A DNA stretch of 37,571 bases from Sneathiella sp. (GTDB lineage: Bacteria; Pseudomonadota; Alphaproteobacteria; Sneathiellales; Sneathiellaceae), in contig NZ_NZMB01000012.1 in the NCBI RefSeq assembly GCF_002694385.1, positions 1 through 37,571 on the forward strand, in the 5' to 3' direction. Under the pieces are notes generated by a model, which was given only the letters and a program-made list of their open reading frames with translations, had not been told where the DNA came from and did no database searches. The position numbers and the translations under genes were made by a program. Below, piece by piece: positions 1,263 through 20,006 of this stretch (its first letter is position 1; each line of letters begins with the position of its first letter).

Positions 1263-2672
1263 CTATAGCGCTGAAAGAAACTTGTAGATTTCCACCATCG
1301 CAAGCGTATCTCGCTCACAGTATCGCAGAAGCGCTTGAGCAATAGATTCTGCTTCATCGGACTCAGCAGAAACCATACGCTGCCACGCCTCCATGGCCGA
1401 CGTTCCATCTTGAACGTCCAGATCGTCATACTTCAGCTCTGGACAAAGAATGGGCAACACCTTCTTGATCGAAGTCGAACCATCAAATTCAATATCAACG
1501 TAATCCGATTTGAAGACATCTTCTAAGTCAATCATTCGCGCATTTAGCGCGTCTAAAAATGCTGCCTTTTGCGGAAAATCTACGGCTAGCTCTCTGTTCC
1601 TTGTCTTCTCAAATGAAGCGTGCCAGGACACAACACTTCCCTCGGGACCGATATCGTCTTGCATTCGTTCAATAAGCTCTAGCGGTAAACGCGCTTCCCG
1701 CTCCAAAAAATCGCGATGAACTAGAACTCCATTGGCTTCAAGAACGTGAAGTGAGTACTGCACAGGGAATTGCCGATGCGGGCTAGCGCCATCAATCAGC
1801 GGTACAGCTGAAGCGTAAGTCTCAAAATCGAAGAAGTACACAGGAAATTCAATTTTACTAAGAAATGACCTTATCTCTGGGACCTTGATAATCGGCTTGC
1901 CACGTTTCGCCGACTGGACGACCAAAAGCTGACCCTCCGATAGATCGCAATCATCTGGGACATCCCGAAGATCGAAAATGCCGCGTGACACAAACTCAGT
2001 CCTAAGCTTGGCACTGAGTCGAGGAATACTGTAGATCGAATGGCGTGGTACAAGTGGATTGAAGATACGAAATGTATCGCATTGTTTGCCCCGAGACTTA
2101 TACAGACAGGGACACCCGTCTCGATCAATAAACTCTTTCTTGGAAAGCACCAAAGCTTGATCGATTTCCAAGGCTGTCTCGCGTTCAAGATCGACAACCT
2201 GCTCGGTAACATCAATAAACGTAAGCAACTTTTCAGGTTCGATTGGACCATCGCGCTTATAGCTCGCGTTGAGATGTACGATGAAAACCCGATCAATATT
2301 TTCTCCCGCACGCTCAGCACAAATCTTCTGAAAACAAGCGTCCTTGAGATGGTTGGCTGACTGGTCAGTCTTGACGCTCGTGGAGGATTTGACCTCGTAA
2401 AGGATTTTTTCACCAGACGCCGAGCGTTCGATGACATCGGCGCGAGCGTATAAACCTTCGCTGGTCTCGAACACTTTCTGGAAAGTCACGTCACGTCCGC
2501 TGTTCTTGAAGAAGCTACGGACGCATTCCTCAACCTCAAAGCCCTCCCGAGTGATCTTTTGTAGAAACAGGCTAAAGTCCCCAGGTGGATACTGGTCGGG
2601 TTGTCTCTTCAGAACCCAAAATGACTTCGGGCAGTTAAGATAGTGTATGAAATCTGTCTTCGTAACACGCAT
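1263..2672 (-). CDS. DUF2779 protein: Cas4-like PD-(D/E)xK nuclease fused to DEDD-type exonuclease-like domain
   Basis: A 469-residue protein. The N-terminal half looks like a RecB/Cas4-type nuclease: C14 in the NCPKSFW segment, D79 (RADV), E93-V-K95, and C187/C189/C198, a one-plus-three cysteine pattern like the iron-sulfur cluster of Cas4. The C-terminal half is the DUF2779 region, with DFETY at 282-286 and YCERDTLAMVEIY (D455) near the end, resembling a ribonuclease-H-fold 3'-5' exonuclease. The start at 2672 has AGGA seven bases upstream; the longer frame to 2753 runs over the candidate ncRNA and is rejected. It is the last gene of the minus-strand operon, downstream of drt3b and the ncRNA, with its stop followed by the noncoding leader of the ardC-like gene. 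Nucleic-acid degradation or processing in defence is inferred; its link to DRT3 is unproven. Confidence 0.75.
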   Translation of the reverse strand: MRVTKTDFIHYLNCPKSFWVLKRQPDQYPPGDFSLFLQKITREGFEVEECVRSFFKNSGRDVTFQKVFETSEGLYARADVIERSASGEKILYEVKSSTSVKTDQSANHLKDACFQKICAERAGENIDRVFIVHLNASYKRDGPIEPEKLLTFIDVTEQVVDLERETALEIDQALVLSKKEFIDRDGCPCLYKSRGKQCDTFRIFNPLVPRHSIYSIPRLSAKLRTEFVSRGIFDLRDVPDDCDLSEGQLLVVQSAKRGKPIIKVPEIRSFLSKIEFPVYFFDFETYASAVPLIDGASPHRQFPVQYSLHVLEANGVLVHRDFLEREARLPLELIERMQDDIGPEGSVVSWHASFEKTRNRELAVDFPQKAAFLDALNARMIDLEDVFKSDYVDIEFDGSTSIKKVLPILCPELKYDDLDVQDGTSAMEAWQRMVSAESDEAESIAQALLRYCERDTLAMVEIYKFLSAL

Positions 2673-2691
2673 CACTTGATCCTGCTCGATT

Positions 2692-2860
2692 GCACCGCAG
2701 GAATAAAGCGGAGCGTGTAGCTTCCTGGTGCCTTCGAGAAATAGGGGTGGCACGCCAAGACCACCCTTTGTGCAAAGAGCCCGGTTTGAATTCAGCCTCC
2801 CCGCCGCGCATGTGTGTGTAGCTGCATACAGCCATTAACTGCCTGACGAAGCGCGTGTGC
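2692..2860 (-). ncRNA. Candidate DRT3 noncoding RNA with ACACACACA template tract
   Basis: This gap between the drt3b stop and the next gene is the only large one in an operon whose other junctions overlap or nearly touch. Read on the minus strand it holds GCTG-TATG-CAGC (2832-2821), a hairpin that abuts TACACACACAT (2820-2810). Next comes GCGCG, which can pair with CGCGC upstream. Then follow a GGGTGG/CCACCC hairpin (2766-2745) and a long closing stem, GCACC-AGGAA with TTCCT-GC-GGTGC (2731-2692). From memory of recent work on DRT3, Drt3a copies an AC-repeat in the system's ncRNA into poly(GT). The repeat, its position and the structures are seen; the RNA itself and its ends are inferred. Confidence 0.62.
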
Positions 2861-4993
2861 TTAGTATACCTCTTGACTTCGCTTGGCGTCCAGCTCTTTG
2901 GCGAAGTCGAACTCCAGCCAATTTGTGAACCACCGCTGAGGCTTAGAAGCATCGTCGGAGTATCCAATCATATCAGCGGCAAGTGCTGGATCAGAGACCC
3001 CAAATATCTTGAGCGCCTCCTCTTTCTTGTCGGACGGTACGTACGGGCAGGAGATCAGGTCGAACAGCAGCAAGACTAGCTCTGAGTCTTTGTGACAGGT
3101 CTCAGAACGATCACGAATACGCTTGATTGCGGTGTCCACCACATGCTCACGCAACTCATTGTACCGCACCTTATCGCGCATATAAAAGAGCGACACAGTG
3201 ATCGAAAAATAGTTTAACGAGTCCCCCGTAGCTCCTCTTCCTCCGACGGAAGCCAAATCGATGCCTAGGTACTCGGACAACACTCCTTGCTCCAGCCAAT
3301 AATCACGGCCCAATGCGGTTAAAGCGATAAGCAAATACAAAGTCTCAACCTGAACATGCTCCGATGACTTGTTCTTTTTCAGTATGAAGCAGATGTTGTC
3401 ATAAATGAGCTTGTGAACAATTTGAACTTGCGCGCGGTCGAAATGCCCCTGCCTCAAGAATGAATTGAATACTTCAAGAATTCGGCAAAGCCGAATAGTT
3501 GTATTAACCCTTGGCGATACAGCATATATGAAAAATAAAAATTCTACGATATTTGTAATGGCGTTTGCCATCTGCCTGGGTGAGCGATTGTCTGTGTCCA
3601 CCTTCATGTAGTCTTCGACAAGACTACGGCTCTTCCTCTCAACAATCGAAAGCGTATAGTTGAGCATGTCTTTATACTCTACAGCGCAAGTCTTGATGAT
3701 TGTCTTGAATGACGTAATCAATGCATTGGAATTGACGAAAACGCTACCATTAACCTCCTGTACTTCACCATTCTCATCGACGACCTCATCTAGATTAAAA
3801 TTTATCCTTTTTTCTAGAAGCTGGGCGATCTGCTGTTTAGCCATAGTAATTTCTGTGATGATAGGCTTCTCGTAGACAACCGCTTTCGCAGAATTCAAAG
3901 AAAGTTTGTAGCGCCGCAAAGCATGTTGGAGCTCGTCAACGATACGCGTCCTATCCTCGTCTCGGTTATAGAACACAAAATAGTCATCCACATACCGAAA
4001 CACTTCATAGTCGACTTGGTGCTCTAGCCGTGAGCCTCCACTCCGTAGAGTGTGTTCAACCTCACGGTCGATGCTTTGAAGTATGATCTCAGCGAAAATT
4101 CGGGAGAACTCTGGACCAATTATGATCCCATTGGTCTCACCCATATTCATACGCTGCATCAGTCTATCGAACCGATCTGGGAAGGAACCACCGCTCTCTG
4201 CCAAGGCTTCCTTTTGAGCGTCTTTCCCAATGGTTGCCCAACCAATTGAGTGCGTATAGATGCTATCGAAGCACTTGGAAACATCGAGTTTGATCAGGTT
4301 ATTGTATTTCTTTTCGCATCGGTGGTAGCGGTAAGATTCGTAGAACTTATAGATATTACTGTACTCACGATACACGAAGAATGAGCGAAGACTTTCATAC
4401 TCACTATCTATCACTTCGATCTTAGATGGTTCTACTGACAATCTCTCCTTATGAAGTTTGTCGTTGTGAAATGTGAATTTAGCAACTTTTGACGGTGCCC
4501 GGATCGAAAACGGGCTCAAGGAAGTGTAGTAGAGTATTGCCTCTTTGCATCGGTCATAGAATTCTGAGACGAGTAGCTGGCTACGGGGGTGCGGTATGCA
4601 AAGCTCTCTGAACTCAGCTTCTTTGTGATTAATCTTGTAGCAAAAGGGAACTAGGAATCCCTCTGGTCTCGGCATTCTATTTGGCTTTGGGATGCCGCTG
4701 TCATTTAGTTGATATCTTCTAAAATCTAATAAGTTCTCGCCAACCAATCGTTTGACATCAGATAGTCGATGAGGATTGTTTGGAAGGCAGAAAAGCATAC
4801 ATACAAGGCGATCCAATGCGGGCGTTCCTTTGAGCCAAACAATCTCCTTGTTGTCATTCTTCTGAATTCGATGGCGCAAGATGAATGCGTACAGGTGACG
4901 GTTCGAAAACGAGACCGGAATCTCATACGGCAGAACATCCGAAAGTAGGCTGCGTTCCTTTTTATATGGCAGGAGAATCTTTTTAGGAGGCAT
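2861..4993 (-). CDS. drt3b: Antiviral reverse transcriptase Drt3b (UG8-like)
   Basis: A 710-residue reverse transcriptase. The palm is at about 230-400, with KLDVSKCFDSIYTHSI (D237) as motif A and FRYVDDYFVFY (YVDD at 334-337) as the catalytic motif; IIGPEFSRIFAEI (291-303) fits the preceding motif B region. A conserved-looking LPYEIPVSFSNR stretch sits at 21-32. The C-terminal 300 residues are helical and carry no second known domain, as in the UG/Abi class. In DRT3 this enzyme partners Drt3a and makes the second, poly(AC) strand; this is from recollection of the literature. The start at 4993 has GGAGG nine bases upstream. The ancestral drt3a stop overlaps this ATG, so the two were translationally coupled before the IS3 insertion. 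Expression now depends on read-through of, or a promoter in, the insertion sequence. Confidence 0.87.
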   Translation of the reverse strand: MPPKKILLPYKKERSLLSDVLPYEIPVSFSNRHLYAFILRHRIQKNDNKEIVWLKGTPALDRLVCMLFCLPNNPHRLSDVKRLVGENLLDFRRYQLNDSGIPKPNRMPRPEGFLVPFCYKINHKEAEFRELCIPHPRSQLLVSEFYDRCKEAILYYTSLSPFSIRAPSKVAKFTFHNDKLHKERLSVEPSKIEVIDSEYESLRSFFVYREYSNIYKFYESYRYHRCEKKYNNLIKLDVSKCFDSIYTHSIGWATIGKDAQKEALAESGGSFPDRFDRLMQRMNMGETNGIIIGPEFSRIFAEIILQSIDREVEHTLRSGGSRLEHQVDYEVFRYVDDYFVFYNRDEDRTRIVDELQHALRRYKLSLNSAKAVVYEKPIITEITMAKQQIAQLLEKRINFNLDEVVDENGEVQEVNGSVFVNSNALITSFKTIIKTCAVEYKDMLNYTLSIVERKSRSLVEDYMKVDTDNRSPRQMANAITNIVEFLFFIYAVSPRVNTTIRLCRILEVFNSFLRQGHFDRAQVQIVHKLIYDNICFILKKNKSSEHVQVETLYLLIALTALGRDYWLEQGVLSEYLGIDLASVGGRGATGDSLNYFSITVSLFYMRDKVRYNELREHVVDTAIKRIRDRSETCHKDSELVLLLFDLISCPYVPSDKKEEALKIFGVSDPALAADMIGYSDDASKPQRWFTNWLEFDFAKELDAKRSQEVY

Positions 4994-5127: not shown

Positions 5128-5130
5128 GTC
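5128..5130. repeat. Target site duplication GTC, left copy
   Basis: GTC directly precedes the left IS end TGAATAG; the identical GTC at 6356-6358 directly follows the right end CTATTCA. A 3-bp duplication fits the IS3 family. Confidence 0.8.
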
Positions 5131-5156
5131 TGAATAGCCCCGTGTTTTCTAGACAC
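5131..5156. repeat. IS3 left terminal inverted repeat
   Basis: Begins TGAATAGCCCC and ends CTAGACAC; pairs with 6330-6355 at 21 of 26 positions. The orfB stop codon lies inside it. Confidence 0.85.
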
Positions 5157-6024
5157 CCTGGGGTTTCAGTTTTTGCTGTCTTTCGAACTCGGTGGGTGAC
5201 AGCATCCCATTGCTAGTGTGTTTGCGTTTTGGATTATAGAACATCTCGATGTAGTCGAATACGTCTGATCTTGCCTCCTCTCTGGTCTTATAGGTTCTGC
5301 GCCGAATACGCTCTCGCTTTAGCAGGCTAAAGAAGTTTTCAGCGACAGCATTGTCATGACAGTTTCCCCGTCGGCTCATGCTGTGTTGCAGATTATGTTG
5401 CTTCATAAACGAAGCCCAGTCGATGCTGGTGAATTGCGACCCCTGGTCTGAATGGATCAGGACCTTTTCCTTTGGCTTCCTGCGCCACACCGCCATCAGT
5501 ACGGCCTGCAGGACCAGATCCGTCGTTTGACGGCTCTGCATCGACCATCCAACGACTTTACGGGAATATAAATCAATCACCACGGCCAGATAGGAAAACC
5601 CTTCATAGGTTTTGATGTAGGTGATGTCAGTGACCCATGTGCTATCTGGTGCTGCGACATCAAACTGCCGATCCAGGGTATTATCGACTGCAGTTGAAGG
5701 CTTGCCGCCATACTTGCCAGGGCGGCGTTTGTAGCCGATCTGAGCCTTGATACCTGCCATTCTGGCCAGCCTTGCCACCCGGTTTGGACAGCATGTCTCG
5801 CCTTGATCTCTGAGGTCATCGTGCAGTTTGCGGTATCCATAGACCTTGCCGCTGTCCTGCCACGCATCCTTGAGCAGTTCCGTCTGACGTTTGTCCTCGA
5901 TAACCCGCGTGCAGAACGGCCGCTTCAGCCAGGCATAGAAGCCACTCGGATGAACACGAAGCATCCGGCACATCGCACGGACAGTGAATACCGGACGATG
6001 CACTTCGATGAACGCGTATCTCAT
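5149..6024 (-). CDS. IS3-family transposase, OrfB (DDE integrase domain)
   Basis: A 291-residue rve-type integrase. The N-terminal HTH_21-like region (about 25-85) precedes the catalytic core, with the first aspartate in WVTDITYIKTYEGF, the second in HSDQGSQF, and the glutamate in CHDNAVAENFFSLLK, that is, an intact DDE triad. The ATG overlaps the orfA stop (ATGA). The active enzyme is expected to be the OrfAB fusion made by a -1 frameshift at the A7 tract in orfA; from that tract the orfB frame has no stop. OrfB alone could also arise by translational coupling. It catalyses strand transfer at the IS ends. Confidence 0.93.
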   Translation of the reverse strand: MRYAFIEVHRPVFTVRAMCRMLRVHPSGFYAWLKRPFCTRVIEDKRQTELLKDAWQDSGKVYGYRKLHDDLRDQGETCCPNRVARLARMAGIKAQIGYKRRPGKYGGKPSTAVDNTLDRQFDVAAPDSTWVTDITYIKTYEGFSYLAVVIDLYSRKVVGWSMQSRQTTDLVLQAVLMAVWRRKPKEKVLIHSDQGSQFTSIDWASFMKQHNLQHSMSRRGNCHDNAVAENFFSLLKRERIRRRTYKTREEARSDVFDYIEMFYNPKRKHTSNGMLSPTEFERQQKLKPQGV

Positions 6025-6296
6025 TTTGCATCCCTGGCGAAATACGCGGTGGCTTTTTTTAGGATGTCACGCTCCTCAGTGACGCGCGCCAGTTCCTGCT
6101 TTAGTCGCCTTATCTCGGCGGATTGATTGTCCTGCTCAGCACTGCCAGGAGGTGTGGAATAACGCTTCATCCAGCCATAAAGAGAATGTGTGCTGACACC
6201 TAAACGCTTCGATACATCTGCAACAGCATATCCCCGTTCGGTTACCTGCTTGATTGCATCCAGTTTGAATTCTTCCGTGAAATTGCTCTTGCCCAT
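6021..6296 (-). CDS. IS3-family transposase, OrfA (helix-turn-helix)
   Basis: A 91-residue protein with a Tnp_IS3 helix-turn-helix (about 8-45, containing VADVSKRLGVSTHSLYGWMKRY) followed by a leucine-zipper-like helix (about 58-82, IRRLKQELARVTEERDILKK). It binds the terminal repeats and, fused to OrfB by frameshift, forms the transposase. The C-terminal segment ILKKATAYFA is encoded over the slippery tract. It is of normal length for the family. Confidence 0.92.
   Translation of the reverse strand: MGKSNFTEEFKLDAIKQVTERGYAVADVSKRLGVSTHSLYGWMKRYSTPPGSAEQDNQSAEIRRLKQELARVTEERDILKKATAYFARDAK
6054..6060 (-). promoter_or_regulatory. Programmed -1 frameshift slippery tract (A7) in orfA
   Basis: The minus strand reads CTA AAA AAA GCC in the orfA frame. 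Slipping back one base gives an uninterrupted path into orfB. This is the usual IS3-family device for making the OrfAB fusion; use here is inferred. Confidence 0.75.
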
Positions 6297-6329
6297 AATC
6301 TTCTCCTTGCCTCATTTCTAACGGACAAA

Positions 6330-6355
6330 GTGTCTACAAATCTAGGGGCTATTCA
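6330..6355. repeat. IS3 right terminal inverted repeat
   Basis: Reverse complement begins TGAATAGCCCC and continues to GTAGACAC, matching the left repeat. The truncated drt3a frame ends on a TAG supplied by this repeat. Confidence 0.85.
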
Positions 6356-7575
6356 GTCTGAAGATACGCATCCAGATCATCAAGATCCTCGACTGTGTTT
6401 AAAAGTGGATTCGAGAAGTAGATACCTGAAACGACGTTTTTCTTGTTGTTCACAAGCCGTGTGTTACCCGTAAGAAAGCGCACCCGACGTTCGAGTAGCC
6501 GTCTAGCGCGTGGCTCTGAAGAAGTCGCGCTCTTGGAGTAAGCATCGAATGTCAAATCCATTCTCTTCTTGTATCGAGCGATCTTCTCGACGGACATTCT
6601 CAAGTCGACCTCCACGGGGTCATTTGGAGCCTTAGGTCCAACCTCAAATCTGTAGCCAAGGTATGTCAGTTGATAAGGCGCTTTGGATGCCACCTTCAGT
6701 ATCTGAGTCTTGGCGCGATTCCTCTTAAGCCCCATCCGTCTGAACGAGCGCCCGACTAGCTGTCGAAAAATTCTTGTTCCCACGTTGGGCGGGAGACAAA
6801 AAATGATAACTATGTCGTCCACGTATCGTGCATAGTACAGCACCCCAGGATGGTTGCGGATACTGCTGTCGATATCGCGCATATACAGTTCTGCCAGATA
6901 GGCGCTTATACCAATGCCGCGAGGAAGTCCTGCATCCCGTCCTGTAATCTGACTATACTCGTATAGAATTCGACGAATTATCTTCTTTGATTGCAAAGTC
7001 AGAAGTGGATCATTTCGCAGTTTTCCAAGAAGGATGTCTCGCGGAATGCTTTCGTAGAATGATGATATGTCCGTACGAACAATGTACTTTGGCATCGCAT
7101 CCGCGAGCAATTCCCGCAACTGGCAGATGATTTCATGCCTATTGGCCTGTTTAACCTTATAGAGACGTCTTATGTTGTGCTGAATTTGCTTGAGCGCGAA
7201 GTGTGTCTCAGCACTTCGTTCGGCCACAAAAACTTTCTTGGGCCTGCCGATGTCAACCTCCCGAATGCCAAAAGAAAAGTCATTTGCACATACGTTCGAG
7301 CTTACTTCTTCAAGCTTTGCGTGGAGCATCTCCTCACGTTCTTTTCGCAGTGTTTCCAATTTATCCGAAAGACTGATGCGTGCGGTCTCATATTCTTCAG
7401 GAGTGTGATTGTCTTTTTCAGTTTTGAGAGAGCGAAGCTCGCCAATGCATGATTGCACTTCCTGGCTTTTGCTTTCAATTTCTGGAAAAAATTCACCTTC
7501 GAGATAGTTTCCCTTTCGGTTCTCGATATCAAAGATTTTTCTAAAGTTTTCTGCTGAGAATGACTGATCAAGCAT
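6349..7575 (-). CDS. drt3a: Antiviral reverse transcriptase Drt3a (UG3-like), C-terminally truncated by IS3
   Basis: A 408-residue reverse transcriptase. A charged, coiled-coil-like N-terminus (about 30-95) precedes the palm: YIVRTDISSFYESI (D169, motif A), GLPRGIGIS (216-224, motif B) and YARYVDDIVIIF (YVDD 251-254). The family role is RNA-templated synthesis of a GT-repeat strand from the system's ncRNA, working with Drt3b in anti-phage defence (family knowledge, partly recalled). The ATG at 7575 overlaps the upstream nuclease stop by eight bases (ATGCTTGA) and has GGAG upstream. The last residue (E408) and the TAG stop come from the insertion sequence; 47 native residues are lost (see 4983-5127). 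The palm is intact, but loss of the C-terminal domain may abolish function. Confidence 0.87.
   Translation of the reverse strand: MLDQSFSAENFRKIFDIENRKGNYLEGEFFPEIESKSQEVQSCIGELRSLKTEKDNHTPEEYETARISLSDKLETLRKEREEMLHAKLEEVSSNVCANDFSFGIREVDIGRPKKVFVAERSAETHFALKQIQHNIRRLYKVKQANRHEIICQLRELLADAMPKYIVRTDISSFYESIPRDILLGKLRNDPLLTLQSKKIIRRILYEYSQITGRDAGLPRGIGISAYLAELYMRDIDSSIRNHPGVLYYARYVDDIVIIFCLPPNVGTRIFRQLVGRSFRRMGLKRNRAKTQILKVASKAPYQLTYLGYRFEVGPKAPNDPVEVDLRMSVEKIARYKKRMDLTFDAYSKSATSSEPRARRLLERRVRFLTGNTRLVNNKKNVVSGIYFSNPLLNTVEDLDDLDAYLQTE
6356..6358. repeat. Target site duplication GTC, right copy
   Basis: Matches 5128-5130 and immediately follows the IS end CTATTCA. In the gene it supplies part of the codons for Q406 and T407 of Drt3a. 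Confidence 0.8.
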
Positions 7576-8788
7576 CGTTGGTTTTGCTCCGCGACTTTTC
7601 TGTTCGGGGAGTCAGGCGCGCTTGCTGCGGATCGTACACGTAGTCCTTGATGCTACCGTCTTTGATCCGCTCGACGGCTTCATCGACCACATTGAACGGG
7701 ACAAGAAACCACTCGCGAGGGACAACAGGATTGCCAAAGCGATCCTTGATCTCGATGTCGAGACGGGCCGGATCGAAGATGCGGTGAATCAGGTTTTCGA
7801 GCTTCGTTCGGTTGATGTTGTAGAGTTCATAGGTCGCAACAACCTCGACATCAGCCAGCAAGAACGTGGCGTCTATCTTTGCATTGGCGATGCGCCGCTC
7901 GACCTTTCCACTTGTTACGCCGATCTTGTGGAGCACGTTGCGATGCTCCTTCACAATCGGAAGATCGGACTTGCTGCGGAGGACGTAGATCGTGCCGCTC
8001 GCCTCATCGCCGTCAGCCGTATGGTCGGCGAAGAGCGGTCCTGCCGAGGAGTCCGTAATTCGACGGCCTGCATCATCCTTATGAAGCGCTCTCTGTAGGG
8101 AGCGCATGAGCATATTGCTCTCGGTGCCGTTGTCGAAGATCACGCGCAAACGGGCATCGGTCATGCCTTGCGCCGTCAGGAACGCTTCGTCCATTTCTGC
8201 AACATAGGCTTTTTGTCCGCCTACGATAAAAAAGCGTCCTGGCGCGATCTCGGCCTTGCGTTCAAAGGGCCGTGTCGTTCGCATGCCTGTATCAATTTCG
8301 TTCTGAACCTGCTCGAACAACGGCTTGAACCGTTCGAAGTCTTCACACTTCTGGCGATTGGCGATCTCTTCCGCCGCCTTCTTTTCAGCGCTGGACCTCA
8401 CATGACGTAGTTCGGTGATGTCCGAAGTTTCCGCCTCGACGCCGAGTTCGGCCAGAAGCGCTTCGTCATCAATGTCGTCGTCGATGGACGTGGCGACTGG
8501 ACCGCTAGCGTCCAGCAGACCGTCTTTGTCAATCGGCTCTAGGAGCTGCCTGAACTCGCCAAGCTCTCTCAACCGATCAAGACGAACCGCGTAGAGCCGT
8601 TCGAAGATGTTCTTATCTTCGCCGTGCTGCGGTGGATGACCGTGCTCTTCGACGAAGCGTTGGATTTCTTCAAACCCCGCGATGACACGTTCTTCCTGCG
8701 GCGTTCTCGCAGCGACCTTCTTGGCCTCGACCTCGACCCCGAGTTCGGCAAGCAGCGCATCGTCTTCTTCAGTGAACTGCTTAGCCAT
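7568..8788 (-). CDS. GIY-YIG nuclease family protein (T5orf172-type domain)
   Basis: A 406-residue protein. The GIY-YIG fold is C-terminal, about 264-375: GTIYVLRS (265-272), HKIGVTSG (287-294), R299, E331 in KLENLIHRIF, and a REWF segment (358-361), all typical of the T5orf172/MUG113 subgroup. The N-terminal 130 residues contain a duplicated motif, DDALLAELGVE (9-19) and DEALLAELGVE (108-118), perhaps docking peptides. It is coupled by 8-base overlaps both to the helicase upstream (ATGGCTGA) and to drt3a downstream (ATGCTTGA). GAGG lies seven bases before the start. It is the only visible nuclease of the methyltransferase-helicase module and so the likely DNA-cutting subunit; that assignment is inference. 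Confidence 0.82.
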   Translation of the reverse strand: MAKQFTEEDDALLAELGVEVEAKKVAARTPQEERVIAGFEEIQRFVEEHGHPPQHGEDKNIFERLYAVRLDRLRELGEFRQLLEPIDKDGLLDASGPVATSIDDDIDDEALLAELGVEAETSDITELRHVRSSAEKKAAEEIANRQKCEDFERFKPLFEQVQNEIDTGMRTTRPFERKAEIAPGRFFIVGGQKAYVAEMDEAFLTAQGMTDARLRVIFDNGTESNMLMRSLQRALHKDDAGRRITDSSAGPLFADHTADGDEASGTIYVLRSKSDLPIVKEHRNVLHKIGVTSGKVERRIANAKIDATFLLADVEVVATYELYNINRTKLENLIHRIFDPARLDIEIKDRFGNPVVPREWFLVPFNVVDEAVERIKDGSIKDYVYDPQQARLTPRTEKSRSKTNDA

Positions 8789-10832
8789 CAGCAGCCTCGG
8801 ATTTCATGCGAGCCAGATAGGCTACACCTTCGGCCATGCGCTTCTCCCACGCATCGGGCGAGGTGATCGACGGCAGCCTGCCGCGCTCCTGTTTGAACTT
8901 CAGCGCCCGCTTGGCCAGATCACGCGCTTCTTCAGGCGTTAGCTGCACCTTTTTCGCGGAGATGATGGCCGCAACCTGTTTCAGACTTTCCTCGCTCATC
9001 GTCTTGGCGAGGATCGCGTAGGCTTCACTGAATGGATTGATGCGGTCGATCAGGTCGATGTCGAGTTCACGAACATCCATCGCGAACTTCCGTACTCCAT
9101 CGATCAGAGCCGTGTTGGCTTTGTCTTCGCCGTCGTCTTCCTTGAGTGCTGCTTCTTTGGCTTTCTGGGTCAGATTGAGAGCGGCGATGGCGTGCTGGCG
9201 GACAGCTTCCTGATCTTCGTCATCCAGCTCGGGGTATTTGTCTTTGATGATCTTGCCCATGCGGACCTGCGTCAGCTCTTCGGGCACAAGCTCTTCGTCG
9301 AACATTCCCCGTTCGACCGTCGGTTTGTCCTGCACGAAGGCGGCGATCACCTCGTTCAGGTCCTCCTGACAGATGCGCTCGGCTTCTTCGCTCTTTGGCT
9401 CAGTGAGCCCCTTGATCTCGATCTGGAACTGGCCGCTCTCTTCGTTGAAGCCGACATTGCATTCGCCTTCTTTGTAACCGCCTTCACCATAGTCGAAGCC
9501 CTCGACAGGTCCACTGTCTGCGCGTTTCGGGGTAAAGTTGAAGCGAGGGGCGAGAACCTGCTCCATTAACAGGCTTGCGGCGATGGCCTTGAGCGTATCG
9601 TTCACCGCTTCGGTAACGGCATCTTCCGATGCGTCCGGTTCGGCAATCAGGTTGGTGAAGCGGGCGCGGCTCTTTCCAGGGGCGTCGCGGGTCGCTCGCC
9701 CAATGATTTGAACGATCTCGGTCAGGCTAGCGCGATATCCGACCGTCAGGGCATGCTCGCACCAAACCCAGTCAAAGCCCTCTTTGGCCATGCCAAGCGC
9801 AATGATGATGTCTATGTGGTCGCGGTTGTTCTTCTGGGCGGGGTCTTTCAGCGCAGCTGAAACCTTGTCGCGCTTGGCGGCTTCGTCATCGACCAGATCG
9901 GCGATCCGCAGGATGCGTCCGTCCGATGTCTTGACCAACTGGAAGCCCGTCGCAGGGTCCGTACCTTGCCAGTCGCCCAACTCGTCGATGATGTGCTCGA
10001 CTTCGCGGTGCTTGTCCTTAGTGCTCTCGCGGGAATTGACACTCGGGATGTGGATGATGGTCTTCTCGTTCGGATCGAGAACCTTGAGGATGTCATCCGC
10101 ATACGCACCCGAGTAGAAGAAATAGCCGATATCGAGCTGCTTCAGATACTTGTAGCCGTTTAGCTGCTCATAATAGGTGTAGGTAACCGTATCAAACCTG
10201 GCCTCGTCATGCGGCATCAGAACAGGCTCGGCGTCGCCTCGGAAATACGAGCCCGTCATCGCAACGACATGAACCTTGTCCCGTCCGATCAACTCGGTGA
10301 GTTGCGCGCCAAGCTTGTTCTCAGGGTTTGCGGAAACGTGGTGGAATTCATCCACGGCGATCAGACAGTCATCAAAAGCCTCAATGCCGAACTTCTCAAT
10401 GGCGTTTCGGAACGTCGCGTGCGGACATACCAGAACTCGATCATCACCCTTTAGGAAGGAGCCAACCGAGTCGGCCTTGCTGCCGTCCGACCCTGGCGCG
10501 TTGCAAAGGTTCCATTTCGGCTCGACATGCCAGTCGGTCCAGAAGCCGAACTTGGATAGCGGCTCGTCGGCAAAGCTCGACCCGATGGATTTCTCTGGGA
10601 CGGTGATGATGGCCTTGCGCAGGCCCTGATTGTGCAGTTTGTCCAGCGCTACGAACATCAGCGCACGGCTCTTGCCCGATGCGGGCGGTGACTTGATCAG
10701 CAGATACTGCTCGCCGCGCTTCTCATAGGCGCGTTCCTGCATCGGTCGCATGCCCAACTCATTCGATTTGGTCGAATTGCCATTCTGGGCGTAGGTGACT
10801 GATACGGAGGGGGCGGTTTTCTCGCTGCTCAT
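8781..10832 (-). CDS. DEAD/DEAH-box superfamily 2 helicase
   Basis: A 683-residue protein with SF2 motifs in order: Walker A SPPASGKSR (48-56), Walker B VDEFHH (DEFH 161-164), motif III MTGS (192-195), and motif VI QIIGRATR (375-382). The layout resembles restriction-type translocases (Res subunits). The C-terminal 290 residues are acidic and helical, with no recognised nuclease motif. It would use ATP to translocate on DNA for the restriction complex. It starts three bases after the methyltransferase stop with GAAGG upstream, and overlaps the GIY-YIG gene by eight bases, so the three products are probably made in fixed ratio. Confidence 0.85.
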   Translation of the reverse strand: MSSEKTAPSVSVTYAQNGNSTKSNELGMRPMQERAYEKRGEQYLLIKSPPASGKSRALMFVALDKLHNQGLRKAIITVPEKSIGSSFADEPLSKFGFWTDWHVEPKWNLCNAPGSDGSKADSVGSFLKGDDRVLVCPHATFRNAIEKFGIEAFDDCLIAVDEFHHVSANPENKLGAQLTELIGRDKVHVVAMTGSYFRGDAEPVLMPHDEARFDTVTYTYYEQLNGYKYLKQLDIGYFFYSGAYADDILKVLDPNEKTIIHIPSVNSRESTKDKHREVEHIIDELGDWQGTDPATGFQLVKTSDGRILRIADLVDDEAAKRDKVSAALKDPAQKNNRDHIDIIIALGMAKEGFDWVWCEHALTVGYRASLTEIVQIIGRATRDAPGKSRARFTNLIAEPDASEDAVTEAVNDTLKAIAASLLMEQVLAPRFNFTPKRADSGPVEGFDYGEGGYKEGECNVGFNEESGQFQIEIKGLTEPKSEEAERICQEDLNEVIAAFVQDKPTVERGMFDEELVPEELTQVRMGKIIKDKYPELDDEDQEAVRQHAIAALNLTQKAKEAALKEDDGEDKANTALIDGVRKFAMDVRELDIDLIDRINPFSEAYAILAKTMSEESLKQVAAIISAKKVQLTPEEARDLAKRALKFKQERGRLPSITSPDAWEKRMAEGVAYLARMKSEAADG

Positions 10833-10835
10833 TGG

Positions 10836-13604
10836 TTATGCCTTCATTCGAGTATTCGTTCTTTTCAAATCATTTGCTGTCGTCATCTTTGTGTAGAGTT
10901 CGAACAACTTTTCCAAACGCTCAGTATCGTTCCTGAAACGACGGCCTATATAGACGCGTTCGAGCACTTCATCATTGCGATCATGGGCGGCGCGCAGATC
11001 AGGTGGCATCATGGCTTCACCATCCTTCACTTCGTAAAGGTCGGCGATGGTTGCAGGGAAATGCGCCTCTCGCGCCAAAAGGATGTCCTCCGCGCAGCGC
11101 GCCAGGTCGGCTTTGTTTTTCTCTGTCAGTGATGGAAGTGGGAACGTGTTCCACCCAAGCGTATTAGAGTATGAATAGTCAGTACGCAGACGCCCGCAGA
11201 TCGTATCAATCCATGACAAATGCAGCTTTGAAGAGATTACTGAAAGTGCCCAAAGAGGGCCATTAGAAATAAAGAATGCCTTGTTAGTCGGAACAACTGT
11301 TGCATCAGCTAGGCCAGCCGGAAAGTACTCGCGATTTTCGGAAGATACTATGGGAACGAATATTTTTGATGCGTCATCTCCCTTCCGTTCTCGGAATTGA
11401 TGAGGTTTGGCCGCGAGCTTATTCACAGCCTTGTCATCCGTTTCCAACCTGTCGCGCCGGACACTTTCAATCCTTTGCCGGACACCAACATATTTAGAGA
11501 CCTCTTCCAACTCGTTGTCGTCAATCCACAAGCAAAACCGTTCTTTGCCATTGATGAACTCAGTTGATCCAAGGAAGCGCCGAACAAAATGAAGCGGCAG
11601 CCCTTCTTGCCGCAACGTGTCCTTATCCTTTGAGTCGAGAATCAAACCACCTGACTTTGAATAGTAGACGCCATAATCCATCGCGACCTTAGAAAAGATC
11701 GGCCTTCTGGAAGCTGGGACAACAGAAATATTATGCTCGGTAAGGTAGGGGTTAATGTTTGCTACTTCGCGGCGGTTCTCGCCGGAATAAATCCATCGCG
11801 GTCCACCCGCTTCGCGGTCAACGCCCGTCACGACAACCGTGACACCCGCCTTGTTGGCCGCGAGGTTTGACCATGTGAAGGATGTATGAGCGAAGCGGAT
11901 ACGAAACCCTCTCTTCAGAAGCAAATCCCATGTTATAGGGACTTGCTGACCTTGGCATATGCTGTTGGTAGCCACGAACGAGAATGGTGCATGGCATACG
12001 TCGTTGAAGAGTGCGGCTTTCATAAGCCACGCTCCTACATAGTCAACGTTCTTCCATTTCGATGTAAGTCCACCAAATACCTGTTGCAGGTCTTCTTTTT
12101 CATGCGGCTTTTGTTTGCGCGTCCCCTTGAACGGCGGGTTTCCGCAAATGTAGGTCTCTCCACCTTCATTCTCGAAGTCGATCTCGGCTTGATCGATGGG
12201 TGACATAAACAAGTCGTCGGCATGGTGCTTCACCCCAGTCCCAGTCGGTGGGCAAATGCTAAGCCAGTCTAGCCGCAAGGCGTTTCCGCATGTTATCCAG
12301 TTCATGGCGTCGAGTGGGAGGAAGTCACGAAGGGCTTCACGTTGCCCGCGGTAAAGCACGTCGCACTGATATTCAGCGATTATGAGCGCGAGGCGGGCAA
12401 TCTCGGCTGGGAAATCACGGAGTTCAATCCCTCTAAAATTTGTCAGCGGGATTTCGGATCGTCGATCCGTCTCGTTGCGTCTTTCGTTGATCTCGGCCTC
12501 GATGGCGCGCATTTCCTTGTACGCGATGACAAGGAAGTTGCCCGATCCGCAGGCGGGATCGAAAACCCTGATCTTGGCCATGCGGTTGCGAAGATTGAGC
12601 AGCTTGCGGGCATTGTCGCCCGCCTCTTCAAGTTTCTCGCGTAGATCGTCGAGAAACAGCGGATTGAGGACCTTCAAGATGTTCGGAACGCTGGTGTAGT
12701 GCATGCCTAGAGCGCCGCGCTCTTCGTCGTCGGCGACGGCCTGGATCATCGATCCGAAGATGTCAGGATTGATCTTCTTCCAGTCGAGATTGCCAATATG
12801 AAGGAGGTAGGACCGTGCGATCTTGCTGAAGCGTGGGACGTCAACGCTCTCTGAGAAGAGCCCGCCGTTCACGTAGGGGAAGCTGTTGGCCCAGCGAGCG
12901 ATACCTTCCTTCTCACGGTCAGCAACTTTTGTGTTCATGGATCGGAACAGCTCGCTGATGATTTCATGCGTATTTGAGCTGTCTTTCTCGCTCATCCGTT
13001 CGATGGTGGCCGTGAACTGATCAGCCTCAGTGAAGATGTCAGTGTCTTCCGCGAAAAAGCAAAAGATCAGCCGCGCCATGAAGTGGTTCATGTCGTGGCG
13101 GCGATCCGCCGTGCCCCATTCAGGGTTGTCCTTCAGCAATTCGATATAGAGACGGTTCAGACGACCCGTCGCCTTGATGTCGAAGGCGCTTTCACGGATT
13201 TGTTTGACTGTGCTGATGCCCGCGAGCGGAAGGAAAAAGCCAAAATGGTCGGGGAAGTCGGGGTAGTTGCAGACGATGACCTCGCCGCTGTTCAGGTCTT
13301 CAGCCTGAAAGTCCTTCCCATCGGTGGCGAGAATGAATTTTGCGCGGGCTTTTGTCGTCGCAGGACTGGCCTTGAGCGCCGCAAGGGCTTCTACGACCGC
13401 GCCATTTTCAGCAACCATGAGGTGGATGTTGTTGGTCTGAAGAACGCCGCCAACATCCGACTTGTTGGACGTGCCGGAACGTAGGCGTTTGATCGTCGTG
13501 GTCTTGTTGCCGAACGCCTCCAAGAACGCGAAGGGAAACTCTTCCGCGTCGAACGGCTGCTCGGCAAGCTTGGATATGGCCTCTTCGATCTCAACGGCGT
13601 TCAA
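10836..13604 (-). CDS. MmeI-like N6-adenine DNA methyltransferase
   Basis: A 922-residue protein with the MmeI-family order: N-terminal domain (about 1-160), helical spacer (about 170-310, MNHFMARLIFCFFAEDTDIF), methyltransferase core with SAM motif I FDPACGSGNFL (348-358) and catalytic NPPF (489-492), then a C-terminal target-recognition domain (about 600-850). Classical MmeI enzymes carry a D...ExK nuclease at the N-terminus; I see no such signature in this one, which fits a separate nuclease subunit. The start is a TTG at 13604 with AAAGGA seven bases upstream, overlapping the end of the small regulator gene by 14 bases. It should modify self DNA and may confer target specificity on the helicase-nuclease partners. 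Confidence 0.85.
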   Translation of the reverse strand: MNAVEIEEAISKLAEQPFDAEEFPFAFLEAFGNKTTTIKRLRSGTSNKSDVGGVLQTNNIHLMVAENGAVVEALAALKASPATTKARAKFILATDGKDFQAEDLNSGEVIVCNYPDFPDHFGFFLPLAGISTVKQIRESAFDIKATGRLNRLYIELLKDNPEWGTADRRHDMNHFMARLIFCFFAEDTDIFTEADQFTATIERMSEKDSSNTHEIISELFRSMNTKVADREKEGIARWANSFPYVNGGLFSESVDVPRFSKIARSYLLHIGNLDWKKINPDIFGSMIQAVADDEERGALGMHYTSVPNILKVLNPLFLDDLREKLEEAGDNARKLLNLRNRMAKIRVFDPACGSGNFLVIAYKEMRAIEAEINERRNETDRRSEIPLTNFRGIELRDFPAEIARLALIIAEYQCDVLYRGQREALRDFLPLDAMNWITCGNALRLDWLSICPPTGTGVKHHADDLFMSPIDQAEIDFENEGGETYICGNPPFKGTRKQKPHEKEDLQQVFGGLTSKWKNVDYVGAWLMKAALFNDVCHAPFSFVATNSICQGQQVPITWDLLLKRGFRIRFAHTSFTWSNLAANKAGVTVVVTGVDREAGGPRWIYSGENRREVANINPYLTEHNISVVPASRRPIFSKVAMDYGVYYSKSGGLILDSKDKDTLRQEGLPLHFVRRFLGSTEFINGKERFCLWIDDNELEEVSKYVGVRQRIESVRRDRLETDDKAVNKLAAKPHQFRERKGDDASKIFVPIVSSENREYFPAGLADATVVPTNKAFFISNGPLWALSVISSKLHLSWIDTICGRLRTDYSYSNTLGWNTFPLPSLTEKNKADLARCAEDILLAREAHFPATIADLYEVKDGEAMMPPDLRAAHDRNDEVLERVYIGRRFRNDTERLEKLFELYTKMTTANDLKRTNTRMKA

Positions 13605-17522: not shown

Positions 17523-19130
17523 ATGATGAGCAATGAAGAGTATCGGTTCGGATCAGCATCTTGGTCTGACGAGAGCGAACTCAGGCGGGCCGGACTGCTA
17601 AGCGCTCGCGGTCTACAGATCGGCTATAGCGCGAACAAATCGATCTGCCTCGAAACCGACGCGCCGATTATCACGGTCGCAGGCGCAGGCTCAGGCAAAA
17701 TGCGCGATCTCCTCGCGCTTGCGGTGGCCCGCAATGCAGGCAACCGAAATTTCATCCTCGACCCGCGCGGCGAGATCGCCGCCGTTACGATGGTGAACTT
17801 CGCTCTCAATCGGAGCTACCTTTATTGCTGGAACCCGACGGGCATGCGTGGCCTCCCGCAGCATCGCATGAACCCGCTCGATATCCTTCGCCTGAACGAT
17901 CCGCACTTCCATGCGGACTGCAAGTTCATCGCCGAAAGCCTGATCCCCACAAGCGGCGCATCGAACGGTCGTTACTTCGAGCTGCGCGCCCGCGAGTGGA
18001 TCGAGAACATCATCAAAATGCTGGTCGAACGGGACGGCAAGGTCAGCTTCCCGGCGCTCTACCGCGTCATCAACTGGATCGAGGCTGACTCGAATGCCTG
18101 GGCAGACTGTCTCGAAGCCATGCTCGGCTCCTCGATGGACAGCGTCAGACGAACTGCTGGCGAGATGCTGGCAAAGCAACAGGAAAGCGAGAAAGAGTTC
18201 GGAAGCATTCTCGGCGAAATCTACGCGCACCTGAACTTCCTTGATGATCCGATGCTTCAGGCCGCGCTGGACGGGGCCGATGCCTCGTTGGCGGATACCT
18301 GCAATTCGGGCCAGCCAACGAGTTGGGCGATCAACGTTCCCATAGAATACGTAGGTCTGTGGTCTCCGATCCTGCGCACAATGTTCACCGTGCAGATGCT
18401 CTACAAGTCGCGAGCACCTTCCGCCCCACGCGTCACGATGATCATCGATGAGGCGGGCCAGCTCGGAAACTTTGAAGCCCTGCTACGCGCCTTCACCTTT
18501 GGTCGCGGCGCTGGCGTTCAGGTCTGGGCGTTGTTTCAGGATGTCGGCCAGATCGTTCGTAACTTCGGCGCACCCGCCCTTCAGGGTTTCATGGGTTCAT
18601 CCGCATTACGCCAGTTCTTCGGCGTGCGCGACTACCAGACAGCGCAGATGGTGTCCTCAATGCTGGGCACCGAAACGCTCGAATATGACGACAGCCTGAG
18701 ACAGGCGGACTCCAAACGGCAAAAGATGAATGCCGCCATGAGCATCATGAATGGCGGCGATCCGTTCTCGGCCTACGCCGACATGAAATATCACGCCTAT
18801 GGCGAAGAGCATCGCACCAAACAGGCGCGCGCACTCATGATGCCAGAAGAAATCCTTTCGATGCCAGAAGACAGGCAAATACTCTTCATTTCGGGCAAGA
18901 GCCTTAAACCCATCTTCGCCGAAAAGCATCCCTACTACGAACGGTCAGACTTTGCTGGGCGCTTCCTGCCCAATCCGTTTCATCCGCCCCACGATTCCGT
19001 GCTTACCCCCTCAAGATGGGGTCGCCGTTGTGCGAGGGTCATCGTTGAGCGCGTGCCGCAGCAATTCTCGCACTACCCGCAATATTCGGACGGCATGTGG
19101 TCCTACGTCGAAGGCTTTCGCCCTTCATAG
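17523..19130 (+). CDS. TraG/VirD4-type coupling ATPase, no membrane anchor
   Basis: A 535-residue type IV coupling protein. Walker A is AGAGSGKM (53-60), with methionine in place of the usual Ser/Thr or Gly after the lysine. Walker B is VTMIIDEAGQLGNFEALL (IIDE 307-310). The surrounding FILDPRGEIAAV, LRAFTFGRGAGVQVWALFQD and LRQFFGVRDYQTAQMVS segments are typical of TraG/VirD4. No N-terminal transmembrane pair is present, unlike VirD4. The protein would bring DNA-relaxase complexes to a secretion channel; no relaxase or channel gene is in the window. AAGGAAAG precedes the start; an in-frame ATG three bases later is equally possible. Confidence 0.88.
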   Translation: MMSNEEYRFGSASWSDESELRRAGLLSARGLQIGYSANKSICLETDAPIITVAGAGSGKMRDLLALAVARNAGNRNFILDPRGEIAAVTMVNFALNRSYLYCWNPTGMRGLPQHRMNPLDILRLNDPHFHADCKFIAESLIPTSGASNGRYFELRAREWIENIIKMLVERDGKVSFPALYRVINWIEADSNAWADCLEAMLGSSMDSVRRTAGEMLAKQQESEKEFGSILGEIYAHLNFLDDPMLQAALDGADASLADTCNSGQPTSWAINVPIEYVGLWSPILRTMFTVQMLYKSRAPSAPRVTMIIDEAGQLGNFEALLRAFTFGRGAGVQVWALFQDVGQIVRNFGAPALQGFMGSSALRQFFGVRDYQTAQMVSSMLGTETLEYDDSLRQADSKRQKMNAAMSIMNGGDPFSAYADMKYHAYGEEHRTKQARALMMPEEILSMPEDRQILFISGKSLKPIFAEKHPYYERSDFAGRFLPNPFHPPHDSVLTPSRWGRRCARVIVERVPQQFSHYPQYSDGMWSYVEGFRPS

Positions 19131-19146
19131 AGAAAGGAGAATGATT

Positions 19147-19476
19147 GTGAGCGACAAACCTGAATTTACAATCCGCGATGGGTCAGTCAAAGCAACGACA
19201 TGGCGGAACGCTGGCGAGAATGGCGACTACTTCACCACGTCTTTCAGCCGCACCTACCGCGACGAGAAGTCGGGCGATCTGCGTGACACGAACGCGTTTT
19301 CAGGGGCCGACCTTCTGAAAGTCTCCGCCCTGGCACAGGAGGCCTATCAGCAGTCGCGAGCGCTTCGCCAAGAAGAGCGCCTTGCGCAAAGGCGCAACGA
19401 ACAAAGCAACGGCGACAGGCTGGCGGAAGCGCGGAGCGGAAGCCGTAAAAGAAGCCGCGACAATCGAGAGCGATAG
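19147..19476 (+). CDS. Conserved-type small protein downstream of coupling ATPase (109 aa)
   Basis: The start is taken as the GTG at 19147, seven bases after AAGGAG; the ATG at 19141 is only one base from it. The N-terminal half (PEFTIRDGSVKATTWRN, FTTSFSRTYRD, DTNAFSGADLLKVSALAQEAY) looks like a small beta-strand domain plus helix of a type I recall beside mobility genes in alphaproteobacteria. The C-terminus is a long, very basic and polar helix ending KRSRDNRER. It may bind nucleic acid. No functional assignment. Confidence 0.65.
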   Translation: MSDKPEFTIRDGSVKATTWRNAGENGDYFTTSFSRTYRDEKSGDLRDTNAFSGADLLKVSALAQEAYQQSRALRQEERLAQRRNEQSNGDRLAEARSGSRKRSRDNRER

Positions 19477-19481
19477 CACGG

Positions 19482-19751
19482 ATGTCGTCGAGAGATGCTC
19501 ATTCATCGATCTGCACCAAGCAGGAGCTGTTGCGGCGATTGCGCGAGAGCAGCAAGCCCGTGTGCGCCGCTACCCTTGATCTTGACGGCCACCTTGGAAA
19601 CGAGGTGAGACGACAAGGCAATGAAGAGAGGCACTCTCGCATAGCAAGGCTGCGAAACGCACTCGCCAGCGCTCAAAGTAGGCTGGAAGCTCAGCACACG
19701 TTTGCGCGGCTCAGCGGATACGCGAAAGCGCGATTTAAGAACGAACGATAG
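19482..19751 (+). CDS. Hypothetical basic protein, last gene before terminator (89 aa)
   Basis: Starts five bases after the preceding stop and ends 32 bases before a strong intrinsic terminator, which argues that it belongs to the same transcript. Helical and basic, rich in Arg, Leu and Ala. No clear ribosome binding site and no recognised family, so it could be a chance frame. Confidence 0.4.
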   Translation: MSSRDAHSSICTKQELLRRLRESSKPVCAATLDLDGHLGNEVRRQGNEERHSRIARLRNALASAQSRLEAQHTFARLSGYAKARFKNER

Positions 19752-19783
19752 CGGAATTAGGAAAGAATATCCCTCTTTGATAT

Positions 19784-19819
19784 GGCCCGATCCCGAGCAA
19801 TAGGATCGGGCCTTCTTTT
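19784..19819 (+). terminator. Rho-independent terminator of the plus-strand mobility operon
   Basis: GGCCCGATCC (19784-19793) pairs perfectly with GGATCGGGCC (19803-19812) around a 9-base loop and is followed by TTCTTTT (19813-19819). It separates the coupling-protein operon from the recombinase unit. Confidence 0.92.
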
Positions 19820-19964
19820 GCCCGAAACCCTTGCTGAGTTTGCGTTTCAGGACACAGGTAAGGTACAATTAAAGTATATATTCAGCTCGCGCAGAAATAT
19901 CGGCGCTAATCACCCCTGATGGGGTAAAGAGCTAATTTATTGTCCAAAAAGGAAATGAAACTGA

Positions 19965-19986
19965 TCAGCATGCAGTGCATTGCTGA
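19965..19986 (+). promoter_or_regulatory. Inverted repeat upstream of the recombinase unit (candidate operator)
   Basis: TCAGCATGCA and TGCATTGCTGA are inverted around one G with a single bulged base, ending 20 bases before the start of the small gene that precedes the recombinase. Likely a protein-binding site controlling excision genes; unproven. A second short hairpin ACCCC-TGAT-GGGGT lies at 19912-19925. Confidence 0.4.
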
Positions 19987-20006
19987 AGGGAGGGGAATTT
20001 GCCCTC

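What the first reader, a model, noticed from the sequence alone, without database searches (positions are those of the whole stretch)
2692..2860. AC-repeat ncRNA of a DRT3 reverse-transcriptase system, sitting downstream of drt3b
The only sizeable gap in the operon after drt3b carries ACACACACA on the coding strand (2819-2811), held directly behind a GCTG-TATG-CAGC hairpin and closed at its 3' end by a long stem. As I recall it, DRT3 systems use an AC-repeat in their ncRNA as the template for GT-repeat DNA synthesis. This would place and delimit that RNA in an alphaproteobacterial DRT3, where the repeat is one unit longer than a plain ACACAC.
Basis: partly seen in the sequence, partly recalled or inferred. 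Interest (0 to 1): 0.85.

Follow-up and report, generated by a model that had tools for sequence, protein, structure and literature searches.

The report
Compact template RNA of DRT3 defence
Just behind an anti-phage reverse-transcriptase gene lies a small RNA gene whose AC repeat is the likely template for GT-repeat DNA; it is a compact, knotted version of a recently described RNA and seems to have its own promoter hidden in the last codons of the neighbouring gene.

Summary
The AC repeat is real (2819-2811, minus strand). It lies in a conserved RNA directly behind drt3b, better delimited as about 2858-2735. All 107 related loci counted carry an AC run of 6 or more nt within 250 nt of the drt3b stop (shuffles 12%).

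Beyond the papers I could read: (1) This RNA belongs to a compact class carried by one Drt3b clade (88 of 88 rows on one side of a branch); EcoDRT3b lies on the other side. (2) Its fold covaries, including a 6-pair pseudoknot between the 5' end and the loop of the 3' hairpin (97.7% paired). (3) In Pseudomonadota the last drt3b codons are synonymously constrained to hold a sigma70-like promoter (28 of 30 clusters, same position), whose -10 box overlaps the codon of the DNA-priming tyrosine; the RNA probably has its own promoter.

In this genome an insertion sequence has cut the last 46 residues off Drt3a, so this copy may be inactive. No experiment was done, and the main DRT3 paper (Deng et al. 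2026) could not be read.

The parts
2735..2858 (-). DRT3 ncRNA, compact class (predicted limits)
   Evidence: Model R1 matches 2859-2734, 84.7 bits, E 1.7e-19 (the window is one of the rows the model was built from); limits from P1, P4 and the promoter position
2811..2819 (-). AC-repeat template ACACACACA
2851..2855 (-). P1 closing stem, 5' strand
   Evidence: 96.6% of cells paired for the helix, 3 of 5 pairs with two-sided changes
2805..2809 (-). P1 closing stem, 3' strand
2820..2833 (-). P2 hairpin abutting the template (likely 5' template boundary)
   Evidence: 95.8% paired, 5 of 5 pairs with two-sided changes
2772..2804 (-). P3 hairpin
   Evidence: fold of the window; this segment folds with z -1 or lower in 66 of 68 rows against simple shuffles
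2745..2766 (-). P4 hairpin, terminator-like
   Evidence: 98.0% paired, 6 of 6 pairs with two-sided changes; terminator-like in the scan
2844..2849 (-). pseudoknot, 5' strand
   Evidence: 97.7% paired, 6 of 6 pairs with two-sided changes; in the window one of the six is a U-U mismatch
2752..2757 (-). pseudoknot, 3' strand in the P4 loop
2887..2892 (-). -35-like element TGGACG inside drt3b
2863..2868 (-). -10-like element TATACT over the last Val and Tyr codons and the first base of the stop codon
2861..4993 (-). drt3b (likely ATG start at 4993; the ORF is open to a TTG at 5017)
6349..7575 (-). drt3a, cut short by the IS: 407 native residues
4983..5130 (-). separated 3' end of drt3a
   Evidence: comparison with L015
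5131..6355 (-). IS3-like element in drt3a, target repeats GTC at 5128-5130 and 6356-6358
1263..2672 (-). DUF2779 gene directly behind the ncRNA
   Evidence: same position in L015, L017, L021 and L022; whether it belongs to the system is not known

Best explanation
Positions 2858-2735 (minus strand) encode the DRT3 ncRNA of a compact class. Inferred: RNA polymerase starts at about 2858-2854 from a promoter inside the end of drt3b and stops at or after hairpin P4. [quoted passage not shown] Drt3a copies the loop over and over into poly(GT), resetting on the AC register. Drt3b makes poly(AC) without a nucleic acid template, primed from its C-terminal tyrosine; the strands anneal and drive abortive infection, as published for EcoDRT3. 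Shown here: place, conservation, fold, pseudoknot, synonymous constraint, gate residues. Inferred: transcription start, boundary role, activity. In this isolate Drt3a has lost 46 C-terminal residues to an IS, so poly(GT) synthesis is doubtful here.
For: Drt3a and Drt3b families; mechanism published for EcoDRT3. AC run in 107 of 107 loci counted against 11.8% of shuffles. Fold: 97.1% of cells paired, 20 of 22 pairs with two-sided changes, 0 of 500 shuffles as high; pseudoknot alone 97.7%, 6 of 6. Model R1 finds 15 of 20 short-type loci left out of it at E 0.05 or better and none of 23 long-type loci up to E 1. In 385 class genomes its only hits at E 1e-5 or better are the 4 short-type drt3b loci; in 398 phylum genomes its 2 hits are the 2 drt3b loci. 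Equivalents of E22, R71, R241, YVDD and Y666 are present. Promoter: 28 of 30 clusters at one position, 0 of 200 synonymous resamplings as good; GTA at the last Val codon in 60 of 63, expected 11.8.
Against: No transcript data. Drt3a of this copy is truncated. P1's outer pair is not standard in 10 of the 64 rows with letters, and RNAalifold does not draw P1. I found the pseudoknot by eye; the automatic test on 19 left-out loci found it in 11 (26% with swapped loops), partly because P1 or P4 was misread. For the count of pairs with two-sided changes in the pseudoknot alone, 21 of 500 shuffles were as high. R1 misses 5 of 20 left-out short-type loci. The promoter signal is weak in Bacteroidota and absent in the long clade.
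Confidence: 0.93

Rival explanations
1. The ncRNA is real but has no promoter of its own: it is cut out of the drt3 operon mRNA, and the codon bias at the drt3b end serves something else, such as translation termination or the 5' end of the RNA.
For: The RNA starts 4-5 nt behind the stop in most A2 rows, and a DUF2779 gene follows on the same strand in the window and four other loci. Serine and leucine codons outside the two boxes are also skewed.
Against: The strongest single-codon constraints fall on the -35 and -10 positions, 18 nt apart, while most codons between and around them are free. Other Val-Tyr pairs in the same genes use GTA in only 23 of 114 cases in Pseudomonadota. The site recurs at one position in 28 of 30 clusters.
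Confidence: 0.15
2. The element is a terminator or leader that controls the DUF2779 gene, and the AC repeat does not template anything.
For: P4 is terminator-like and DUF2779 follows in the window, L015, L017, L021 and L022.
Against: Most short-type loci show no DUF2779 hit behind the RNA yet keep repeat and fold. In EcoDRT3 mutating the repeat region abolishes poly(dTdG) and defence (PMC13174585).
Confidence: 0.03
3. Chance AC repeat in an ordinary intergenic gap.
For: 6 of 100 shuffles of the whole window contain an ACACACACA; the fold energy is average.
Against: 107 of 107 related loci counted carry an AC run at this place, inside a covarying fold.
Confidence: 0.005
4. The locus is a dead remnant in this genome: the RNA is made but has no active partner.
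For: IS insertion removes 46 C-terminal residues of Drt3a that all 100 relative rows measured have in some form, 43-67 residues.
Against: drt3b, its gate residues, the promoter-like site and the RNA are intact. The insertion may be recent: near-identical L015 lacks it. Activity of the shortened Drt3a is unknown. This is compatible with the best explanation for the kind of element.
Confidence: 0.6

Closest known systems
EcoDRT3 ncRNA (PMC13174585; protein PDB 26cz)
   Same: Directly downstream of drt3b; AC repeat in a loop with a stem-loop beside it; partner Drt3a and Drt3b with the same gate and priming residues.
   Different: In its close relatives L098, L117 and L118 the repeat lies far behind the drt3b stop (128 nt in L098) inside a larger fold. 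Model R1 does not find them. Their Drt3b lies on the other side of a branch with support 100.
DRT3 of Deng et al. 2026 (proteins PDB 9z6y, 9z6z)
   Same: Drt3a, Drt3b and an ncRNA with ACACAC, according to the review PMC13314766 (passages).
   Different: Its Drt3b is nearest to the long-type L099 (491 bits) and scores 258 bits with the window. Its ncRNA could not be compared: the paper is not held.
DRT10 ncRNA (PMC12632851, passages)
   Same: Short repeat template placed directly behind a stable stem-loop that is suggested to set the 5' template boundary.
   Different: Different RT family (UG17), template varies between systems, SLATT partner, RNA upstream of the SLATT gene.
Telomerase RNA (works like; from passages in PMC12632851, and general knowledge)
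   Same: Short repeat template with a stem-loop or pseudoknot boundary element.
   Different: No homology was tested or claimed.

Membership tests
DRT3 system | Drt3b (UG8) reverse transcriptase | tested here: met
   PADLOC PDLC03784, E 1.8e-205
DRT3 system | Drt3a (UG3) reverse transcriptase gene next to drt3b | tested here: met
   PADLOC PDLC03768, E 4.1e-110; the gene is interrupted by an IS near its 3' end
DRT3 system | Drt3a complete enough to work | tested here: inconclusive
   46 C-terminal residues lost; activity cannot be tested here
DRT3 system | ncRNA directly downstream of drt3b with an AC-repeat template in a loop | tested here: met
DRT3 system | Drt3b gate and priming residues E22, R71, R241, YVDD, Y666 | tested here: met
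   E32, R137, R306, 342-345 and Y718 in the window
DRT3 system | Poly(GT)/poly(AC) synthesis and phage defence | not testable with these tools
   needs experiments
EcoDRT3-type ncRNA (long class) | Match to the published covariance model | not testable with these tools
   the model is not held
EcoDRT3-type ncRNA (long class) | Same fold: the compact model should find long-type loci | tested here: not met
   R1 hits 0 of 23 long-type loci up to E 1
Rfam families | Any Rfam family at its gathering score | tested here: not met
   only a tRNA in the window

The most novel reading that the evidence does not exclude
A whole clade of DRT3 systems uses a compact ncRNA built like a minimal telomerase RNA core (boundary hairpin, short repeat template, pseudoknot tying the terminator loop to the 5' end), expressed from its own promoter whose -10 box is the codons for the last Val and the DNA-priming Tyr of Drt3b. 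The same few bases would specify the protein primer of one DNA strand and drive the RNA template of the other.
Probability: 0.6. Interest if true: 0.75.

Novelty: new variant of a known kind. Interest (0 to 1): 0.6.

Why it matters
It extends a newly described DNA-synthesis immune system to a large clade whose ncRNA is built differently and more compactly than in the relatives of EcoDRT3. It gives a covariance model and exact testable elements: pseudoknot, boundary hairpin, promoter. If the promoter overlap is real, one short stretch of DNA encodes the protein primer for poly(AC) and drives the RNA template for poly(GT).

Tried and rejected
Rfam at gathering thresholds gave only a tRNA. Chance AC repeat: rejected by conservation. 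Single-sequence folding energy was uninformative (z -0.18). A first free search for the pseudoknot over 78 nt was too loose (own mean score 16.5, swapped 14.6) and was replaced by alignment counts. A DNA search of plasmids with the RNA itself found only one weak match of about 26 bases, E 5. L099 DNA found nothing in E. coli genomes. Twelve R1 hits at E 8.7e-5 to 0.009 are taken as chance; the two best (L126, L127) show no AC run of 6 or more on the strand read, and the other ten were not looked at. The Leu codon of the -35 region shows no clear preference for CTT (20 of 69, expected 14.4). Serine AGC at codon -5 is over-used too, but changes between AGY and TCN need two steps, so I give it no weight.

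Deng et al. 2026 (PMC13533446) and Mestre et al. 2022 are not held, so I cannot say whether they show this class, the pseudoknot or the promoter.

Full report
OBSERVATION. The minus strand carries ACACACACA at 2819-2811, once in the window. It begins 42 nt behind the stop of a gene that PADLOC calls Drt3b (E 1.8e-205); upstream is Drt3a (E 4.1e-110). The gap ends at a DUF2779 gene with a weak Cas4-like N-terminal match.

WHAT IS KNOWN. PMC13174585 (abstract, passages, and the sections on DRT3b structure and Discussion) reports that the EcoDRT3 ncRNA lies in cis downstream of drt3b, that a conserved ACACAC in a loop templates poly(dTdG) by DRT3a, that DRT3b makes poly(dCdA) guided by E22 and R241 and primed by Y666, and that a stem-loop lies next to the template. 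Its ncRNA model came from EcoDRT3 and close relatives (32 unique hits in the methods, 41 systems in a legend). The word pseudoknot does not occur in it (count 0 in the listing), and 'promoter' occurs twice, both for pBAD. The review PMC13314766 (passages) describes a 6:6:6 complex from Deng et al. 2026, which is not held.

RELATED LOCI. Drt3b loci came from viral contigs, plasmids, whole genomes and GTDB species contigs, later E. coli. Of 116 loci examined, 111 have an AC run of at least 6 nt within 320 nt behind the drt3b stop. The other five are L027 and L109, whose drt3b frame ends early or runs on, and L114-L116, which match only part of Drt3b; in L027 the RNA model still finds the RNA at 7132-7256. 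After dropping those five and four near-duplicates (L001, which is the window, L003, L004, L015), 107 of 107 have 6 or more nt and 97 of 107 have 7 or more within 250 nt, against 11.8% and 3.4% of dinucleotide shuffles.

TWO CLASSES. In one set the repeat starts 24-77 nt behind the stop ('short'), in the other 101-239 nt ('long'). In a quick maximum-likelihood tree of 111 Drt3b rows, the 88 short rows are one side of a branch with support 100 and the 23 long rows the other; nine loci were left out (L001, L003, L004, L009, L027, L109, L114-L116), and the tool warns of long branches, mostly on the long side. The EcoDRT3b structure 26cz matches L118 (1308.7 bits over its whole length) and L117 (1438.9 bits over 646 residues); 9z6y matches L099 best of those tried (491 bits). 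All three loci are long-type. Window Drt3b scores 285 and 258 bits against the two structures. The short clade holds Pseudomonadota, Bacteroidota and single loci of Acidobacteriota, Verrucomicrobiota, Nitrospirota, Campylobacterota and Margulisiibacteriota. Most short loci were fetched with a short-type alignment, capped at 80 of 276, so the numbers do not give relative abundance.

FOLD. A2 holds the window and 67 loci; 19 short-type loci of other lengths were left out (L002, L007, L008, L026, L035, L037, L039, L040, L047, L050, L056, L064, L068, L080, L085, L087, L093, L094, L097), as were duplicates and L027. Structure named by me: P1 closes the template loop; P2 is the hairpin directly 5' of the template; P4 is the 3' hairpin; PK pairs six bases behind the 5' strand of P1 with the P4 loop. 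In 66 distinct rows 97.1% of cells pair, 20 of 22 pairs have two-sided changes and 0 of 500 shuffles reach any of the five measures; slid versions pair 29-45%. PK alone: 97.7%, 6 of 6 pairs with two-sided changes; 21 of 500 shuffles reach that last count and none the other four measures; slid versions pair 31-53%. RNAalifold, which draws no pseudoknots, shows only P2 and P4. Between P1 and P4 a further hairpin P3 folds with z -1 or lower in 66 of 68 rows (mean z -3.63, simple shuffles). An automatic search for PK in the 19 left-out loci gave a helix of score 11 or more in 11 of 19 (26% with swapped loops); in the core set 57 of 68 (48% swapped, inflated by related loops). In the window PK has five standard pairs and one U-U mismatch.

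SPECIFICITY. Model R1 (without PK) found 15 of 20 short-type loci left out of it at E 0.05 or better (12 at 0.01 or better), missed L008, L039, L040, L056 and L087, and hit none of 23 long-type loci up to E 1; three off-target hits had E 0.1-0.45. In 385 class genomes the Drt3b profile found 5 loci and R1 found 4 at E 1e-5 or better, exactly the short-type ones; 12 further genomes had weak hits. In 398 phylum genomes, some of them the same, R1 (to E 1e-4) and the Drt3b profile found the same 2, the window's own and one new. The new locus (L138) shows promoter boxes, P1, P2, template, PK and P4 by eye.

EMBEDDED PROMOTER. The scan of 2600-3200 found two promoter-like sites (mean 0.3 in shuffles), one of them TGGACG-18-TATACT at 2892-2863, ending on the first base of the drt3b stop. 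In short-type loci of Pseudomonadota and phage contigs the last Val codon is GTA in 60 of 63 (11.8 expected from the same genes), and in 24 of 25 at one locus per 60% cluster (5.5 expected). Other Val-Tyr pairs in these genes use GTA in 23 of 114. The Asp codon that makes the -35 part is GAC in 57 of 58 (21.7 expected). At one locus per 70% cluster z is 6.8 for GTA and 4.2 for GAC; Ser AGC (6.1), Leu CTG (3.3) and Gly GGA (2.4) are skewed as well, the other codons tested are not. A sigma70-like site of 9 or more of 12 lies at exactly this position in 28 of 30 clusters (not in L007, L097); resampling synonymous codons never reached the mean score (0 of 200). In Bacteroidota, whose promoters differ (recalled), GTA is 9 of 16 (4.9 expected), the site is at this position in 5 of 14 clusters, and 2 of 200 resamplings reach the mean; the long clade (16 clusters) shows no excess (88 of 200). 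A start 5-9 nt behind the -10 box (recalled spacing) would fall at about 2858-2854, where P1 begins (2855). That the promoter works is inference.

PROTEINS. Equivalents of E22, R71, D182, F187, R241, YVDD and Y666 are present in the window (E32, R137, D245, F250, R306, 342-345, Y718, numbered from the TTG at 5017; I matched the positions through the alignments). In the 88 short rows E22 and R71 are present in 87 with one gap, and D182, F187, R241, both Asp of YVDD and the priming Tyr in 88; in the long rows there are single exceptions. The product should therefore again be poly(AC).

DAMAGE. An IS3-like element (5131-6355; target repeats GTC) interrupts drt3a. The window ORF keeps 407 native residues; the near-identical L015 has 453 and an empty site. 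All 100 relative rows measured (a few duplicates among them) have 43-67 residues beyond this point. A related element, 69% identical, lies on another contig of the genome. Activity of the shortened Drt3a is unknown.

NEIGHBOURS. A DUF2779 gene follows the ncRNA on the same strand in the window and in L015, L017, L021 and L022, 176-248 nt behind the drt3b stop. Helicase and GIY-YIG-like genes related to those of the window lie upstream of drt3a in L002, L015, L017, L020, L028, L053, L063, L070 and L088; many loci hold too little upstream DNA to tell.

VERDICT. The compact class, the pseudoknot and the embedded promoter are the new parts as far as the papers I could read go (searches; PMC13213688 seen in listings only; PMC12632851 in passages).

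Noticed in passing
5131-6355: IS3-like element (transposase ORFs 6021-6296 and 5149-6024) cuts the last 46 residues off drt3a; near-identical L015 carries the empty site.
   Followed up: yes
1263-2672: DUF2779 gene with weak Cas4-like N-terminal match directly behind the ncRNA, same strand; same arrangement in L015, L017, L021 and L022.
   Followed up: partly
7568-13604: MmeI-like type IIG enzyme, DEAD helicase and T5orf172/MUG113 protein upstream of drt3a on the same strand; helicase and T5orf172 relatives recur upstream of drt3a in nine other loci.
   Followed up: partly
32-1084 and 17523-22051: ArdC-like antirestriction gene on one side; TraG-like coupling protein and a serine recombinase overlapping a tRNA-Arg on the other: the defence genes may sit on an integrated conjugative element.
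   Followed up: no
L119:2671-6055: E. coli GYB01 carries a short-type DRT3 with both genes annotated; 9 of 5,426 complete E. coli genomes hold at least 80% of the query.
   Followed up: partly
L098-L110, behind drt3b: In several long-type loci a TTGAAA- or TTGCGA-like element in the last codons stands 17-18 nt before an AT-rich hexamer by eye; the test showed no excess.
   Followed up: partly
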